A stretch of 64,000 nt of DNA from Sphingomonas sp. GTDB lineage: Bacteria; Pseudomonadota; Alphaproteobacteria; Sphingomonadales; Sphingomonadaceae. Below are positions 30,313 to 47,690 of the stretch, one piece after another. The stretch is from contig NZ_JANINP010000004.1 of NCBI RefSeq assembly GCF_024508665.1, positions 186,001-250,000 on the forward strand, given 5' to 3'. Under the pieces are notes generated by a model. The model was not told where the DNA came from, ran no database searches, and saw nothing but the letters and a program-made list of their open reading frames with translations. The position numbers and the translations under genes are program-made. Position 1 is the first letter of the stretch; each line of letters opens with the position of its first letter.

Positions 30313-31745
30313 GCCGATCGGGCAATATCCTGGTCCTCGACGACGATGCGGCGATCCGGACGGTGGTCGCGCACGCTTTGCGCCGTGCCGGGCATCGCGT
30401 CACGACCACCGCCAGCCTGGCCGAGTTCAACCGCGAATTGCGCGCCGCGATGCCGGATGTGGTGGTGAGCGACGTCGTCCTGCCCGACGGCAACGGCCTG
30501 GATATGGTGGCGGGCCTGGTCCAGACCTATCCGCAGCTGCCCGTGATCGTGCTCTCGGCCCAAAATACGCTTACGACCGCCGTGCGGGCGACCGAAGTCG
30601 GCGCCTATGATTATTTGCCCAAGCCGTTCGACCTCGATGACCTGACCCGTGCAGTGGACGGCGCGCTTGCGCGCCAGGGCGACGGTACCGATGAAAAACT
30701 CGAAGACGCCGACCGCGCCTTGCCCTTGATAGGACGATCGCCGGCGATGCAGGACGTCTATCGCGTCATCGCGCGAGTGATCTCGAACGACCTCACCGTG
30801 CTGATCTCGGGTGAGTCCGGGACCGGCAAGGAACTGGTCGCGCGCGCCATCCACGACCTGGGTCGGCGCGCGCATGCGCCGTTCCTGGCGATCAACATGG
30901 CGGCGATTCCGCGCGAGTTGATCGAGGCGGAATTGTTCGGTCATGAACGCGGTGCCTTCACCGGCGCGCAGGCGCGATCGGCCGGGCGGTTCGAGCAGGC
31001 CGCCGGGGGCACGTTGTTCCTCGACGAAATCGGCGACATGCCGCTCGAGGCGCAGACGCGGCTGTTGCGGGTGCTGCAATCAGGCGAGTTCACCACAGTG
31101 GGTGGTGCCCGCACGATCAAGGCCGATGTGCGCATCGTCGCGGCAACCAACCGCGATCTCAACGCCCTCGTTCAGTCGGGGCAGTTTCGCGAAGATTTAT
31201 TCTATCGTCTCAACGTCGTACCGGTCACTCTTCCAGCCTTGCGAGAACGGCGCCAGGACATCGCTCTGCTCGCGCGCCACTTCCTCGACCGTGCCGCCGA
31301 GAACGGCCTGCCACGCAAGCGCCTCGATGAGGCGGCCGTCGTCGCGCTCGAGGCCCATGACTGGCCGGGCAATGTCCGCGAACTGGAAAACATTATGCGT
31401 CGACTCGCAGTGCTGAGTCGCGATGAAGTCATCGGGGCGGGGGAGTTGGGCAGCGTCCTCGGCATGCCGTCGGCCACCGCACCGGCCGGGGCTCCGGACC
31501 TCGATACGGCGGTGCGAGCGCGGCTCGACCGCATTGCGCGCGAAGATCCCCGTGCGCTCGACGACGGCACGATCTACGAACGTATCATCGCCGAGATCGA
31601 ACGACCGCTGATCGAGGCGATGCTGGCGCGCCATGGGGGCAACCAATTGCGGGCTGCGCGGGCGATGGGGATCAACCGCAATACACTGCGCAAACGGCTC
31701 GATACGCTGGGCATCGACCCGGGCGGTACGGCGGACGGGGGCTGA
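30309..31745 (+). CDS. ntrC: Nitrogen regulator NtrC (sigma-54 activator)
   Basis: 478-residue response regulator. Receiver domain residues 1-120 with Asp55 as phospho-acceptor ([13 protein letters not shown]). The AAA+ domain has Walker [10 protein letters not shown], the sigma-54 contact motif GAFTGA, and Walker [13 protein letters not shown]. The C-terminal Fis-type helix-turn-helix includes [20 protein letters not shown]. It activates nitrogen-assimilation promoters with RpoN when NtrB phosphorylates it. ntrY follows after a 64-base gap with two inverted repeats. Confidence 0.96.
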
Positions 31746-31755
31746 TCCACGACGG

Positions 31756-31810
31756 TTTGACGTCAAATATGTGTTTTCCTTGCCACGCAGTCGTTGTATT
31801 CCTGCAACGA
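31756..31810 (+). promoter_or_regulatory. Two inverted repeats between ntrC and ntrY
   Basis: TTTGAC-GTCAAA (31756-31767) is a perfect 12-base palindrome. TCGTTG-N8-CAACGA (31791-31810) ends on the first base of the ntrY ATG. No Shine-Dalgarno sequence is visible between them. The first could be an operator; the second could fold over the translation start. The regulator is unknown. Confidence 0.45.
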
Positions 31811-34080
31811 TGAGTGGCGAGAGCACGATCGCCGCGCCCCGGCGTTTCTGGGGCGGGCGCCCCAGGATAACTCCGGCCGTGGAGCTGGCCGTGCTCGTCG
31901 TGGCGATCGCGGTAGGGGTTGCTACCTATTTCGTCGTCCGAGCCGGAGCCGCGCCGCAGCGCCTGCTGACGCCGCCGCTCGTCGCATTGCTGCTGGTGGT
32001 CAATCTCGGACCGTGTGTCGCGCTGATCATGCTGCTCGGTCGGCGCTTGGCGAAGAGCCGCGTGGCGAAATCCGGGGCGGGCGGGGAAGGGCGGCTCCAC
32101 GTGCGGCTCGTCGCTCTGTTTTCGACCATCGCCACGGTGCCGACCGTGCTCGCGGTTATCTTCGCCTCGGTCATGTTCCAATATGGCGTCGAGTTCTGGC
32201 TGTCCGACCGTGTCAGCAATGTTCTCAAGAACGCCACCACGCTGGCGCAGGAATCCTACGAGCAATCGCTCGCCAATTGGAACGCGAATACATTGCAGGC
32301 GGCCGATGATATCGCTGCGCACTGGACCCCCGACTGGTTGCGCACCGCGACACCCCAGACGATCCTGACCAAGCGCGACGCTTATGGCTATACGCTGACC
32401 AACTATCTGACGCTGCAGCTTTACAACCGCCAATTGTCCGAAGGCGCGCTCTTCCGGGTGGAGGCGAATAACCAGATCCAGTTCCTGACCAGGGTCGACG
32501 AATATGGCAGCGTCGAAAAACAGATCGACCCCGTCGCCGTGGCATCGGTCCAGCGCGACAAGCGCAGTGTCGTCACCGTGCAGGGCGATCGCATTCGCGT
32601 AGTGGCGCCGGTGCCGGGCGTAGACGGCCTTCTGCTCTACGCTGGTCGGGTGACCGAAGGCGGCGGCGCCAACCGGCAGCTGCAGCGTTTTGGCGATGTC
32701 GTCGCCGATTTCCGGGCATTGCAGGCGCGGGCCCGCGCGCTTCAGCTGCAATTCAACGCCGCCTTGTTCATCGTCGCATTATTGATCGTCGGGATCGCGG
32801 TGTGGATCGCGCTGGTCGTCGCCGATCGGCTGGTTCGTCCGGTTGGCGAAATGGTGTCAGCCGCGCGGCGCATTGCCGATGGCGATCTCACCGTCCGCGT
32901 GCCCGACCCGCGGACGGATGACGAAGTCGGCACGCTGGCCAATGCGTTCAACCGCATGACCTTCAGGCTGCAGGAGCAGACCGGGGCCCTCGAAAGCCGC
33001 CGCGCGTTGATCGAGGCGGTGATGTCGGGCGTTTCCGCCGGCGTGATCTCGGTCGATGGCAGGGGGGCGATCCGGTTGCTCAACGCTTCGGCGGTCGCTC
33101 AGCTCAAGCTCGACGAAACGCAAGCGGTCGGCGCGCAGCTTGCCGATGTCGCGCCCGAACTGGCCGAGTTGCTCGAGGGCGATACCCGCGAATCGATCGT
33201 GCAACTGACGACGGGCGGTGAGCCCCGGACGCTGGCGGTGCGCATCACGGCCGATGAGGACGGCCGCGTCCTGACGTTCGATGACATCACCCAGCAATTG
33301 CTCGATCAGCGCCGCGCCGCGTGGTCCGACGTCGCCCGGCGTATCGCGCATGAGATCAAGAACCCACTGACCCCGATCCAACTCGCCGCCGAGCGGCTGC
33401 AACGCCGCTACGGCAAGACGATCGACGAGAAGGACGGCGTCTTTGCCCAGCTGACCGATACGATCGTGCGCCAGGTCGGCGATCTGCGCCGGATGGTCGA
33501 CGAATTCTCGTCCTTCGCGCGCATGCCCAAGCCGGTTTTCCACCCCGAATCGCTGATCGATCTGACGCGACAGGCGGTATTCCTGCACGAAGTGGCGCAT
33601 TCCGACATCACCTTCCGGCTCGATATGCCGGAGGCCGCGCCTCTGGTCTGCGACCGCCGCCAGATCGGCCAGGCGCTGACCAACATCATCAAGAACGCGG
33701 TCGAGGCGATCGAGGCGCGCGGAGAAGGTGCGCCGCCTGGCGAGATCAATGTCACGCTCGATCATGGCGAGCGCCTGATGACCGCGACGATCGCCGATAA
33801 CGGCATCGGACTGCCGCTCGAGCGCGACCGGATCGTCGAACCCTATATGACGACGCGCGCGCGCGGCACCGGCCTGGGCCTGGCGATCGTCAAGAAGATC
33901 ATCGAGGAACATTGCGGCACGATCGCCTTTTCCGACCGCCCGGGCGGCGGCACGGTCGTGACCATCGTCTTCGACACCCTGCAACTCGACGCCCTGCTCG
34001 ACGATAATCGTGACCCCGCGGAAACCAGCAAGGGCGAAGGCGCGCTGGCGATGCTCACCCGTACCGGACAAAAATCATGA
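31810..34080 (+). CDS. ntrY: Membrane sensor kinase NtrY
   Basis: 756-residue membrane histidine kinase. Membrane helices lie at about 20-45, 55-75 and 95-120, then a periplasmic sensor region (about 125-310), another helix (about 316-340) and a HAMP domain (RLVRPVGEMVSAARRIADG). A PAS domain precedes HisKA His514 (RRIAHEIKNPLTPIQLAAERL), and the ATPase domain has NIIKNAVEAIE, DNGIGLP and GTGLGLAIVKKII. NtrY homologues sense redox or nitrogen cues and phosphorylate NtrX. The stop overlaps the ntrX start. Confidence 0.95.
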   Translation: MSGESTIAAPRRFWGGRPRITPAVELAVLVVAIAVGVATYFVVRAGAAPQRLLTPPLVALLLVVNLGPCVALIMLLGRRLAKSRVAKSGAGGEGRLHVRLVALFSTIATVPTVLAVIFASVMFQYGVEFWLSDRVSNVLKNATTLAQESYEQSLANWNANTLQAADDIAAHWTPDWLRTATPQTILTKRDAYGYTLTNYLTLQLYNRQLSEGALFRVEANNQIQFLTRVDEYGSVEKQIDPVAVASVQRDKRSVVTVQGDRIRVVAPVPGVDGLLLYAGRVTEGGGANRQLQRFGDVVADFRALQARARALQLQFNAALFIVALLIVGIAVWIALVVADRLVRPVGEMVSAARRIADGDLTVRVPDPRTDDEVGTLANAFNRMTFRLQEQTGALESRRALIEAVMSGVSAGVISVDGRGAIRLLNASAVAQLKLDETQAVGAQLADVAPELAELLEGDTRESIVQLTTGGEPRTLAVRITADEDGRVLTFDDITQQLLDQRRAAWSDVARRIAHEIKNPLTPIQLAAERLQRRYGKTIDEKDGVFAQLTDTIVRQVGDLRRMVDEFSSFARMPKPVFHPESLIDLTRQAVFLHEVAHSDITFRLDMPEAAPLVCDRRQIGQALTNIIKNAVEAIEARGEGAPPGEINVTLDHGERLMTATIADNGIGLPLERDRIVEPYMTTRARGTGLGLAIVKKIIEEHCGTIAFSDRPGGGTVVTIVFDTLQLDALLDDNRDPAETSKGEGALAMLTRTGQKS

Positions 34081-35447
34081 GCCTGGACATCCTCGTCGTA
34101 GACGACGAGCAAGACATTCGCGAACTGGTCGCCGGCGTCCTGCAGGACGAAGGCTATGAGACGCGCGCCGCCGCCGACAGCGATTCCGCGCTGGAAGCGA
34201 TCGCGACGCGCCGGCCGAGCTTGGTCCTTCTCGACGTCTGGCTGCAGGGATCGCGGCTCGACGGACTGGAATTGCTCGAGGAGATCAAGCGGCGTGACGC
34301 CTCGATCCCGGTGCTGGTCATTTCCGGCCATGGCAATATCGACACCGCGGTAGCTGCGATCCGGCGCGGCGCGGTCGATTTCATCGAAAAGCCGTTCAAC
34401 GCCGACCGCCTGTTGCTGATGGTCGGCCGCGCGACCGAAACCGAGCAATTGCGTCAGGAGGTCGCGTCCCTGCGCGCCGCGACCGGGCGCGACACCGACC
34501 TCACCGGCACCTCGACCGCGATCAACGCGGTCCGCGCGACGCTCAAGCGCGTTGCCGGCACCGGCAGCCGGGTGCTGATCATGGGCGCCGCCGGAGTTGG
34601 CAAGGAAGTCGCCGCGCGCCTGCTCCATAGCTGGAGCCAGCGGACCCAGGGACCGTTCATCGTGGTCAGCGCGGCGCGGATGACTCCCGAACGCGTCGAA
34701 GAGGAATTGTTCGGCGTCGAGGAAGCTGGCGACCTGGTGCGCACCGGCCTGCTCGAACAGGCGCATGGCGGGACCTTGTTCCTCGACGAGATCGCTGACA
34801 TGCCGATGGCGACGCAGGGCCGGATCCTGCGCGTCCTGACCGACCAGAGCTTCACCCGGGTCGGCGGCACCCGCACCGTAAAGGTCGACGTCCGCGTCGT
34901 TTCGGCGACCGCGCGAGACCTTCAGGCCGAGATCGCCGAAGGCCGGTTCCGCGAGGATCTCTATTACCGGCTCAACGTGGTCCCCGTTACGATTCCGCCG
35001 TTGGCCGACCGCCGGGAGGACATTCCCGCCCTCGTCGACCATTTCGTCGCGCATTATGCCGCCGAACGCCGCGTACCCACGCCCGAAGTCGCGGAAGACG
35101 CCATGGTGGCGCTGCAAAGCTACGAATGGCCAGGTAACGTCCGACAACTCAGGAACGTGGTCGAACGCACGATCATCCTGGCGCCGGGCGATCGTATCGG
35201 GCGGATCGACGTCGACCTTTTGCCGGCGGAAGTACTGGGCGGAGCGGGCGAGGGGGCAGGCGCTTCGGCGATGATGGGAGCGCCGTTGCGTGAAGCGCGA
35301 GAGACGTTCGAACGCGAATATCTGAAGGTCCAGATCCGGCGCTTTTCGGGCAATATCTCGCGGACCGCGACGTTCATCGGGATGGAGCGGTCGGCGCTGC
35401 ACCGCAAGCTCAAGCTGCTGGGGATTACCGACAGCCGCGACGAATAG
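34077..35447 (+). CDS. ntrX: Response regulator NtrX
   Basis: 456-residue NtrC-family regulator. The receiver has Asp53 (LVLLDVWLQGSRLDG); its loop is longer than in NtrC. The AAA+ domain keeps Walker [13 protein letters not shown], but Walker A reads GAAGVGKE (Gly170-Lys176), and the place of GAFTGA is taken by VEEAGDLVRTG. Without that loop it should not remodel sigma-54 polymerase directly. The C-terminal Fis-type helix-turn-helix (FSGNISRTATFIGMERSALH) is intact, so it probably binds DNA as an ordinary activator or repressor. It is partnered with NtrY. Confidence 0.94.
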   Translation: MSLDILVVDDEQDIRELVAGVLQDEGYETRAAADSDSALEAIATRRPSLVLLDVWLQGSRLDGLELLEEIKRRDASIPVLVISGHGNIDTAVAAIRRGAVDFIEKPFNADRLLLMVGRATETEQLRQEVASLRAATGRDTDLTGTSTAINAVRATLKRVAGTGSRVLIMGAAGVGKEVAARLLHSWSQRTQGPFIVVSAARMTPERVEEELFGVEEAGDLVRTGLLEQAHGGTLFLDEIADMPMATQGRILRVLTDQSFTRVGGTRTVKVDVRVVSATARDLQAEIAEGRFREDLYYRLNVVPVTIPPLADRREDIPALVDHFVAHYAAERRVPTPEVAEDAMVALQSYEWPGNVRQLRNVVERTIILAPGDRIGRIDVDLLPAEVLGGAGEGAGASAMMGAPLREARETFEREYLKVQIRRFSGNISRTATFIGMERSALHRKLKLLGITDSRDE

Positions 35448-35522: not shown

Positions 35523-35610
35523 GTAGCGCGCGCGCCGCGTGGGCATGCGCTTCAGACGCCAGAGAACGGCGCCATGCGGGTCAAGGCCCGCCAAGACCAA
35601 GGATCGCCAT

Positions 35611-36102
35611 ATGGCCGACAAACAAACCTCGCTCCAGGACCTGTTCCTGAACGCTCTCCGCAAATCGAAGACGCCGGTGACCATGTTCCTGGTCAAGGGC
35701 GTGAAGCTCCAGGGCATCGTGACCTGGTTCGATAATTTCTCGGTCCTGTTGCGCCGCGACGGCCAGTCGCAGCTGATCTACAAGCACGCGATCTCGACGA
35801 TCATGCCGTCGAACCCGATCGACATTGCGGCGATCACCGCCGCGATCAACCCGGACCCGAAGAAGTCGCCGCTGCTGCAGGAGATTTTCCTCAACGCGGT
35901 ACGCAAGTCCGAAGACAGCGTGACGATGTTCCTGGTCAATGGCGTCATGCTCCAGGGGCATATCGCGGCTTTCGACCTGTTCTGCATGCTGCTTGAGCGC
36001 GAAGGCATGGCGCAATTGGTCTATAAGCACGCGGTATCAACGATTCAGCCGGCCCATCCGCTGAATCTTGCCGAAGAATCAAACGGTTCTGACGAGGATT
36101 GA
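35611..36102 (+). CDS. hfq: Tandem-domain RNA chaperone Hfq
   Basis: 163-residue protein made of two complete Hfq/Sm domains joined head to tail. Domain 1 (about 7-66) has [17 protein letters not shown] and YKHAISTI; domain 2 (about 88-147) has [17 protein letters not shown] and YKHAVSTI. The proximal-face residues Gln9/Gln90, Phe43/Phe124 and the YKHA motif are kept in both. A linker of about 20 residues ([20 protein letters not shown]) joins them. Ordinary Hfq is one domain forming a hexamer, so three of these chains would make a ring. AAGGA lies 7 bases before the ATG at 35611. I recall a similar duplication noted in Novosphingobium, so this may be a sphingomonad trait. hflX overlaps the stop. 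Confidence 0.95.
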
Positions 36103-37385
36103 CCACAGGATTCGAACGTGATCGCGACGAGTTCGCCCGGGGTGCTCGGGCGATCGTCGTGTTGCCGGACCAAGGCAATGCCAGCCGCGACGCCGATGCC
36201 CGGCTCGCGGAAACGGCGGGGCTTGCCTCCGCGATCGGTGTCGAGGTGGCGGAAAAGATCGCCTATCGCGTCCGCCAGCCCAAACCCGCCACGCTGATCG
36301 GGTCGGGTCAGGTAGAGCAGCTCGCCGCCCAGGTGCGCATGGAAGACGCGCAGCTCGTCGTATTCGACGCGAGCCTGACGCCGGTCCAGCAGCGCAATCT
36401 GGAAACAGCGCTCGAGTGCAAGGTGATCGATCGTACCGGCCTGATTCTCGAAATCTTCGGCGAGCGCGCGGCGACGGCGGAAGGGCGGTTGCAAGTCGAG
36501 CTCGCGCACCTCGATTACCAGGCCGGCCGGCTGGTGCGTAGCTGGACTCACCTCGAACGCCAACGCGGCGGCTTCGGCTTTCTCGGTGGTCCGGGCGAAA
36601 CCCAGATCGAGGCCGACCGCCGCCTGATCCGCGACCGCATGGCGCGGTTGCGTAAGGAACTCGACCAGGTCAGCCGCACGCGCGGACTGCACCGCGAACG
36701 CCGCCAGCGCGCGCCTTGGCCGGTAATTGCCCTGGTCGGCTATACCAACGCCGGTAAATCTACACTTTTCAATCGGTTGACCGGCGCTGACGTCATGGCA
36801 GAAAATCTGCTGTTCGCGACGCTCGACCCGACGCTACGCCAGATCCAATTGCCGGGCATCGACAAGGCGATCCTCTCGGACACGGTGGGCTTCGTCTCGG
36901 AGCTACCGACCCAACTCGTCGCAGCGTTCAAGGCAACCCTCGAAGAAGTGGTCTCGGCCGACCTGTTGATCCATGTCCGCGACATCGCCCATCCCGATAC
37001 CGAAGCCCAGCGGGCCGATGTCGAACAAGTGCTCCGCGAACTCGGTGTCGCCGACACCACACCGCGCTTCGAGGCGTGGAACAAGATCGACCTGCTCGAC
37101 GACGACGATCGCCAAGATGCGCTGGCCGAGGCTGCGCGGCGGGACGATGTGGTGGCGATCTCTGCGATGAGCGGGGAAGGGGTGGACGAACTCAAGCGCG
37201 AGGTCGCTGCCAAGCTGACTGCAGGACATCGCCGCTATTCGATCACCCTAGATGCCTCCGACGGCGCGGGAGCCGCGTGGCTTCACCAGCATGGCGAAGT
37301 GCTGGGGCAGGAGGTTGAGGGGGATCGTGCGACCTATGACGTGCGGATGGCGCCGCGCGATTATGAGCGCTTCCAGCAGCGTTGA
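36099..37385 (+). CDS. hflX: Ribosome-associated GTPase HflX
   Basis: 428-residue GTPase that splits stalled or hibernating ribosomes. The N-terminal HflX domain has the Gly-rich [19 protein letters not shown], followed by a coiled coil. The G domain has G1 [10 protein letters not shown]3 [11 protein letters not shown]4 NKIDLL and G5 SAMSGEG. TTG at 36099 overlaps the hfq stop (TTGA) and is the only plausible start before the conserved region. The ribosome site GAGGA is unusually close, which suggests coupled translation with hfq. The order hfq-hflX is widely conserved. Confidence 0.94.

Positions 37386-47600: not shown

Positions 47601-47690
<90 letters not shown>

What the first reader, a model, noticed from the sequence alone, without database searches (positions are those of the whole stretch)
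35611..36102. Hfq with two fused Sm domains
One chain carries two full Hfq domains (about residues 7-66 and 88-147), each with its own Gln, Phe and YKHA RNA-site residues. The two rims differ: LRKSKTPV in domain 1, VRKSEDSV in domain 2. A ring of three chains would have alternating sites, so its RNA preference may differ from a normal homohexamer. I recall one earlier note of such a duplication in Novosphingobium, so it may mark the order Sphingomonadales rather than this genome alone.
Basis: partly seen in the sequence, partly recalled or inferred. Interest (0 to 1): 0.75.

Follow-up and report, generated by a model that had tools for sequence, protein, structure and literature searches.

The report
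Two-domain Hfq RNA chaperone of sphingomonads
This bacterium's Hfq, the ring-shaped protein that helps small RNAs meet their targets, has two ring domains fused in one chain; the fusion is already in print and shared by its relatives, but the two halves carry consistently different RNA-contact residues.

Summary
In detail: window 35611-36102 (+) encodes 163 aa with two complete Hfq domains in one frame, the only Hfq gene found in the genome, between ntrX and hflX. It is no artefact: both domains share one open frame in all 111 two-hit own-family genomes that I fetched and in all 80 named contigs. It is not new: Yang et al. 2010 (PMC2877685) reported two Sm-like domains in Zymomonas Hfq and six other Sphingomonadales and raised the three-chain ring; NCBIfam model NF010691 spans the tandem. 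It marks a clade within the family, not the order: 300 of 313 own-family genomes have two hits, other families one. Trees fit one duplication. What I did not find in print is the asymmetry: in 98 of 98 non-redundant main-clade tandems found without a sequence pattern, domain 1 has K28+K31, domain 2 N28+M31 and Q63; domain 2 loses the basic rim (mean charge about 0 against +4.8) but keeps nearly all uridine and A-R-N residues. Most likely three chains make one alternating ring with six base-binding sites and three annealing rims; the ring is inferred.

The parts
35611..36102 (+). hfq coding sequence, 163 aa, two Hfq domains in one frame
35599..35603 (+). AAGGA, likely ribosome-binding site of hfq
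   Evidence: read; not tested
35632..35820 (+). Hfq domain 1 (residues 8-70)
   Evidence: PF17209 108.2 bits
35656..35679 (+). rim of domain 1, LRKSKTPV
   Evidence: positions 16, 17, 19 and 47 all basic in 171 of 171 main-clade tandems
35695..35697 (+). Lys codon, E. coli position 28, domain 1 (Asn in single-domain Hfq and in domain 2)
35821..35874 (+). linker between the domains (residues 71-88)
   Evidence: between the Pfam matches; 15-20 aa in 171 main-clade tandems by another domain boundary
35875..36063 (+). Hfq domain 2 (residues 89-151)
   Evidence: PF17209 90.6 bits
35899..35922 (+). rim of domain 2, VRKSEDSV, charge reduced
35947..35949 (+). Met codon, E. coli position 31, domain 2 (Lys in single-domain Hfq and in domain 1)
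36064..36099 (+). acidic C-terminal tail (residues 152-163)
   Evidence: mean 4.96 and minimum 0 D/E in the last 10 residues of 171 main-clade tandems
34077..35447 (+). ntrX, upstream neighbour
   Evidence: NF051870 749.9 bits against 600
36099..37385 (+). hflX, downstream neighbour (the listed TTG start may not be the true one)
   Evidence: TIGR03156 469.1 bits against 216.75

Best explanation
This is the ordinary chromosomal Hfq of a Sphingomonas-like bacterium in its clade's tandem form. One internal duplication in an ancestor inside the family gave a chain with two Sm-type domains (supported by distribution and trees). Three chains most likely close one six-domain ring in which domains 1 and 2 alternate (inferred). 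Domain 1 stayed close to the ancestor and carries the full basic rim, so annealing would occur at three rim patches instead of six (inferred from residues). Domain 2 kept nearly all uridine-pocket and A-R-N residues, so the proximal and distal faces would still hold six nucleotide sites (inferred), but lost most rim charge, and carries the chain's acidic tail. Each chain thus has one basic rim patch and one acidic tip, which may preserve the tail-rim autoinhibition described for Caulobacter Hfq. The reciprocal change N28 to K in domain 1 and K31 to M in domain 2 keeps six lysines per ring at these two positions but places them on alternate subunits.
For: Only Hfq gene found in the genome, conserved place with ntrX and hflX. 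Both domains in one frame in 111 of 111 fetched two-hit own-family genomes and 80 of 80 named contigs. HflX tree: 65 tandem rows are one side of one branch (support 86), the 12 own-family single-domain rows lie outside. Domain tree: domain 1 one group (90/96) among own-family single-domain Hfqs, domain 2 one group (100/97). In 98 of 98 main-clade tandems not found by pattern: D1 K28 K31, D2 N28 M31 Q63; Q8, F25, V30, Q33, Q52, Y55, K56, H57, T61 in both domains. Charge over positions 16-20, 47, 48: 42 singles +4.7, D1 +4.8, D2 -0.04 (98 set). Both domains under purifying selection: median dN/dS 0.027 and 0.111. AlphaFold2 single-chain models of the window protein and of a relative about 41% identical to it have pTM 0.86 and 0.88, too high for two independently placed domains (my estimate for that case: about 0.5). 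Caulobacter Hfq: a tail residue bonds to the neighbouring protomer of the ring, and the acidic tip packs on basic rim residues (PMC6561178, section 5), so a link of 15-20 aa from one domain's end to the next domain's start within a ring seems reachable (inference).
Against: No oligomer was modelled or measured; coordinates of the models were not available, so it is not shown that the two domains pack edge to edge. Covariation on 183 tandems (effective number 46) does not separate domain 1-domain 2 strand contacts from contacts within like domains. AlphaFold2 may place two Hfq domains side by side from training on Hfq rings. In genus g12, Q33 of domain 2 is kept in only 2 of 12 and M31 in 5 of 12, so not all of the division of labour is universal. 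Seven of 171 main-clade tandems lack L41 in domain 2, R16 of domain 2 is kept in 133 of 171 and 4 of 171 keep all four basic rim positions there; in the 73 pattern-found tandems the domain-2 rim is still mildly positive, +1.6.
Confidence: 0.78

Rival explanations
1. Six chains form two stacked rings, one of six domain 1 and one of six domain 2, joined by the linkers.
For: A linker of 15-20 aa might also allow stacking (inference); covariation does not exclude it.
Against: A domain-2 ring would have little basic rim, and the lysines at 28/31 would be twelve in one ring and none in the other, whereas an alternating ring keeps six (from the residues). High pTM of the single chain in two diverged members suggests a fixed mutual place of the two domains, though a stacked arrangement is not excluded by that number.
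Confidence: 0.08
2. Domain 2 is a passive or inhibitory part: it completes the ring but binds no RNA, and domain 1 does all the work.
For: Domain 2 lost most rim charge, W38 and usually N41, and its dN/dS is about four times that of domain 1; in g12 it decays further.
Against: Q8, F42 (97 of 98), Y55, K56, H57, Q33, Q52 and T61 of domain 2 are kept in the 98 main-clade tandems, which a non-binding domain need not keep.
Confidence: 0.13
3. Sequencing or assembly duplication, or a recent tandem repeat.
For: None found.
Against: One frame in 111 of 111 fetched two-hit own-family genomes and 80 of 80 named contigs; the two domains differ at many fixed positions.
Confidence: 0.005

Closest known systems
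Zymomonas mobilis Hfq (ZMO0347), Yang et al. 2010, PMC2877685
   Same: Two Sm-like domains in one Hfq chain; same order; the paper notes six other Sphingomonadales species and raises the three-chain ring (passages seen). It reports a role of hfq in tolerance to acetate, vanillin, furfural and HMF.
   Different: The passages seen give no residue asymmetry, no clade boundary and no structure. I did not compare the Zymomonas sequence itself.
NCBIfam NF010691.0 (PRK14091.1), equivalog, 176 positions
   Same: Covers residues 1-161 of this protein as one stretch, 294.6 bits against a cut-off of 270.
   Different: The model is named only 'RNA chaperone Hfq'.
Caulobacter crescentus Hfq (PDB 6gwk; PMC6561178)
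   Same: Closest solved structure by sequence: phmmer E 1.8e-32 over residues 2-73; VIA-align Z 10.2, rmsd 1.1, 71 residues of 6gwk_R. Same kind of basic rim in domain 1 and an acidic tail.
   Different: One domain per chain, homohexamer, six tails and six identical rims.
Eukaryotic Sm/LSm heteroheptamers (recalled; mentioned in a passage of PMC2877685)
   Same: Rings made of non-identical Sm domains.
   Different: Seven separate proteins; here one fused chain in a bacterium, most likely six domains.

Membership tests
Hfq (Pfam PF17209) | Profile match over the curated cut-off | tested here: met
   195.5 bits against 27, two stretches; each domain over the cut-off
Hfq (Pfam PF17209) | Proximal uridine pocket: Gln8, Phe42, Lys56, His57 (list as in PMC5379935) | tested here: met
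   Present in both domains of the window protein; in the 98 set, D1 98 of 98 for each, D2 98, 97, 98 and 98 of 98
Hfq (Pfam PF17209) | Distal A-R-N residues: aromatic 25, Leu26, Ile/Val30, Leu32, Gln33, Gln52, Thr61 (PMC6422490) | tested here: met
   Present in both domains of all 171 main-clade tandems; Q33 of D2 in only 2 of 12 of genus g12
Hfq (Pfam PF17209) | Basic rim patch in every subunit | tested here: not met
   Domain 1 has all four basic positions in 171 of 171, domain 2 in 4 of 171. I still file the protein as Hfq: a passage of PMC6561178 speaks of Hfqs that lack the rim arginines, and the other features tested are met.
Hfq (Pfam PF17209) | Hexameric ring | not testable with these tools
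   Only single-chain models could be made
Tandem Hfq (NCBIfam NF010691) | Full-length match over the curated cut-off | tested here: met
   294.6 bits against 270, residues 1-161
Heteromeric Sm/LSm ring | Ring of non-identical Sm domains at fixed places | not testable with these tools
   Inferred from fixed domain-specific residues only

The most novel reading that the evidence does not exclude
Tandem Hfq is a fixed pseudo-heterohexamer with divided labour: a reciprocal exchange at the distal side (D1 N28K, D2 K31M, with D2 M63Q), seen in all 171 main-clade members examined, and loss of the rim in domain 2 make three annealing rims beside six base-binding sites, matched by three acidic tips. 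It would be a bacterial case of the step from a homomeric to a heteromeric Sm ring, with surviving single-domain relatives in the same family to compare with.
Probability: 0.55. Interest if true: 0.6.

Novelty: already known. Interest (0 to 1): 0.4.

Why it matters
The architecture itself has been in print since 2010. It matters as a natural experiment: single-domain Hfqs of the same family, tandem Hfqs with fixed division of residues, and a genus where both domains drift allow a direct test of how many rim patches, tails and distal sites an Hfq ring needs, and of how rings of identical Sm domains become rings of different ones. It also warns that RNA-binding rules learned from E. coli Hfq need not hold unchanged in this group of bacteria.

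Tried and rejected
Assembly artefact or split gene: rejected. Order-wide marker: rejected. Second hits in G001 (f2) and G454 (another family) looked like tandem Hfq outside the clade; they are a fragment on another contig and a separate second hfq gene on another contig. Tandem Hfq elsewhere in the phylum: 159 of 249 genomes have a match; in the rows listed (the list was cut at its weak end) only the 10 own-family genomes match over 150 or more query residues, the others over at most 96. In the class sample (289 genomes, 237 with Hfq) only G454 outside the family had two hits. Covariation between strands of the two domains: inconclusive. Fold searches: the 50 rows shown by each are single Hfq chains, aligned to one domain in the VIA rows, so they do not show how the domains are arranged. 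Solved tandem Hfq: none of the 35 PDB sequences matched is longer than 114 residues. Papers: in the listings and the passages seen I met no report of the domain asymmetry or of a tandem structure; the library holds open papers only, listings were cut, and Sun et al. 2002 (recalled) was not seen. PMC9797736, PMC5770649 and PMC7546472 were only searched for words such as Sm-like, hexamer and trimer, without a remark on two domains.

The 80 named loci were found with the peptide patterns FLVNGVML and [VI]TWFD[NA]FS, so they are biased towards N28/M31; I therefore recounted without them (98 left of 171). Loci were also chosen from the listed, stronger matches and by genus, not at random.

Full report
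What is there. The ATG at 35611 opens a 163-residue frame that ends at 36102. Pfam's Hfq model matches it twice, at residues 8-70 and 89-151. These are the only Hfq matches found in the 4.6-Mb genome. The gene lies between ntrX (34077-35447) and hflX (36099-37385), both named by NCBIfam models over their cut-offs; the kinase-like frame upstream (31633-34080) reached none of the cut-offs shown and its name NtrY is recalled. Of 204 tandem loci, 196 hold matches to both neighbours, 4 only to ntrX and 4 only to hflX.

Already known. Yang et al. 2010 (PMC2877685; passages seen) wrote that the Z. [quoted passage not shown] NCBIfam's equivalog NF010691 spans the tandem protein. No solved tandem Hfq was found; the best PDB sequence is the single-domain Caulobacter Hfq.

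Distribution. In 396 genomes of the order, 390 have Hfq. Counted by hand from that table, 313 belong to the window's family: 300 with two matches, 13 with one. Of 83 genomes of seven other families, 77 have a match, one each except G001, whose second match is a fragment on another contig; 6 have none. One-frame fusion was verified in 111 of the 300 two-match genomes, 111 of 111 fetched, and in all 80 named contigs; these make 204 loci because some genomes were fetched twice. For the other 189 genomes only the two matches were seen. In the class sample (289 genomes, 237 with Hfq) the only two-match genome outside the family has two separate genes. In the phylum sample (249 genomes, 159 with a match, weakest rows not listed) only 10 genomes, all of the own family, match over both domains. 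The nearest named relative is Sphingomonas asaccharolytica NBRC 15499 at 98%. The unnamed family is presumably Sphingomonadaceae, inferred from the named loci.

One origin. On an HflX tree of 107 rows, the 65 tandem genomes sit on one side of one branch (support 86), with 12 own-family single-domain genomes outside it (quick method; several long branches, one of which, a row of another family, falls near an own-family single-domain row; the thirteenth own-family single-domain locus gave no hflX match). On a tree of 108 domains, domain 1 sequences group together (90/96) among the own-family single-domain Hfqs, and domain 2 sequences group together (100/97) on a long stem of unsure place (few columns, bootstrap not settled). 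The simplest reading is one duplication, with no reversal and no exchange between the domains seen.

Asymmetry. In E. coli numbering (recalled, aligned by me), the non-redundant sets hold 171 main-clade tandems, 12 of the divergent genus g12, 12 own-family singles and 30 other singles. Positions 28 and 31 read N,K in all 42 singles; K,K in domain 1 and N,M in domain 2 of all 171, among them the 98 that were not found with a sequence pattern. Position 63 is Q in domain 2 of all 171 but M in domain 1 of 168 and in 41 of 42 singles. In g12, K28 of domain 1 holds in 12 of 12 and N28 of domain 2 in 11 of 12, while M31 holds in 5 of 12. Over positions 16-20, 47 and 48 the mean charge is +4.7 in 42 singles, +4.9 in domain 1 and +0.7 in domain 2 of the 171; in the 98 set +4.8 and -0.04, in the 73 pattern-found ones +5.0 and +1.6. 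Position 41 is N in domain 1 of all 171 and L in domain 2 of 164; W38 becomes A (136) or G (24) in domain 2. The residues that hold uridine and A-R-N bases are otherwise kept in both. In 71 own-genus and similar loci, median dN/dS is 0.027 for domain 1 and 0.111 for domain 2 (pairs whose synonymous difference fell outside 0.1-0.6 were dropped, 2188 and 2174 of 2485 pairs kept).

What this suggests. In E. coli, K31 is a distal-face residue and R16 a rim residue; R16A nearly abolishes captured RNA pairs and K31A lowers them, although both mutants keep part of their regulatory activity (PMC12262471, a preprint, passages). In Caulobacter Hfq the acidic tail tip packs on rim residues R18 and K19 (16 and 17 in E. 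coli numbering), K21 (19) bonds to R49 (47) in the same protomer, and a tail residue bonds to the neighbouring protomer (PMC6561178, section 5; the offset of two is mine). In the tandem chain the tail belongs to domain 2 and the complete basic rim to domain 1, and domain 2 has lost the charge of both 19 and 47 in most members. A three-chain alternating ring would thus have three tails for three rims and the ancestral number of six lysines at 28/31. A ring of domain 2 alone would have little rim charge and none of these lysines. This favours mixed rings, but is an inference from composition.

Structure. AlphaFold2 on 127 tandem sequences gave pLDDT 90.4 and pTM 0.86 for the window protein; on 37 sequences it gave 92.8 and 0.88 for a g12 member 41% identical to the window protein. 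Such pTM values suggest that the two domains have a well-defined mutual position. Covariation (183 rows, effective 46) was uninformative.

Verdict. A correct observation of a known protein architecture, with a clade boundary, a single origin and a fixed division of residues added here. The oligomer and the functional division remain to be tested.

Noticed in passing
L045, L047, L049, L051, L053, L054 and others: N-terminal extensions before domain 1: 37 of 171 main-clade tandem Hfqs have a T-L/I-S/T-A-R-P motif in the open frame before domain 1; the window protein lacks it. Function unknown.
   Followed up: partly
L075-L086 (genus g12, genomes of 2.1-2.6 Mb): Tandem Hfq is very divergent here; both domains lose residues that are invariant elsewhere (domain 2 Q33 kept in 2 of 12), but K28 of domain 1 (12 of 12) and N28 of domain 2 (11 of 12) stay.
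   Followed up: partly
L174 and L191: Contigs titled 'Microvirga sp. SRT01' and 'Bacillus sp. 2B10' encode Sphingomonas-type tandem Hfq at 81% and 80% identity; probably misnamed or contaminated records.
   Followed up: no
L043 (G338): Own-family single-domain hfq with no hflX match in the roughly 2.5 kb fetched on either side.
   Followed up: no
L090 (G454:C3): A second, diverged, separate hfq gene in a genome of another family of the class, with no hflX or ntrX match beside it.
   Followed up: no
window 47601-47690: tRNA-Ser (anticodon TGA), the only tRNA found in the window.
   Followed up: no
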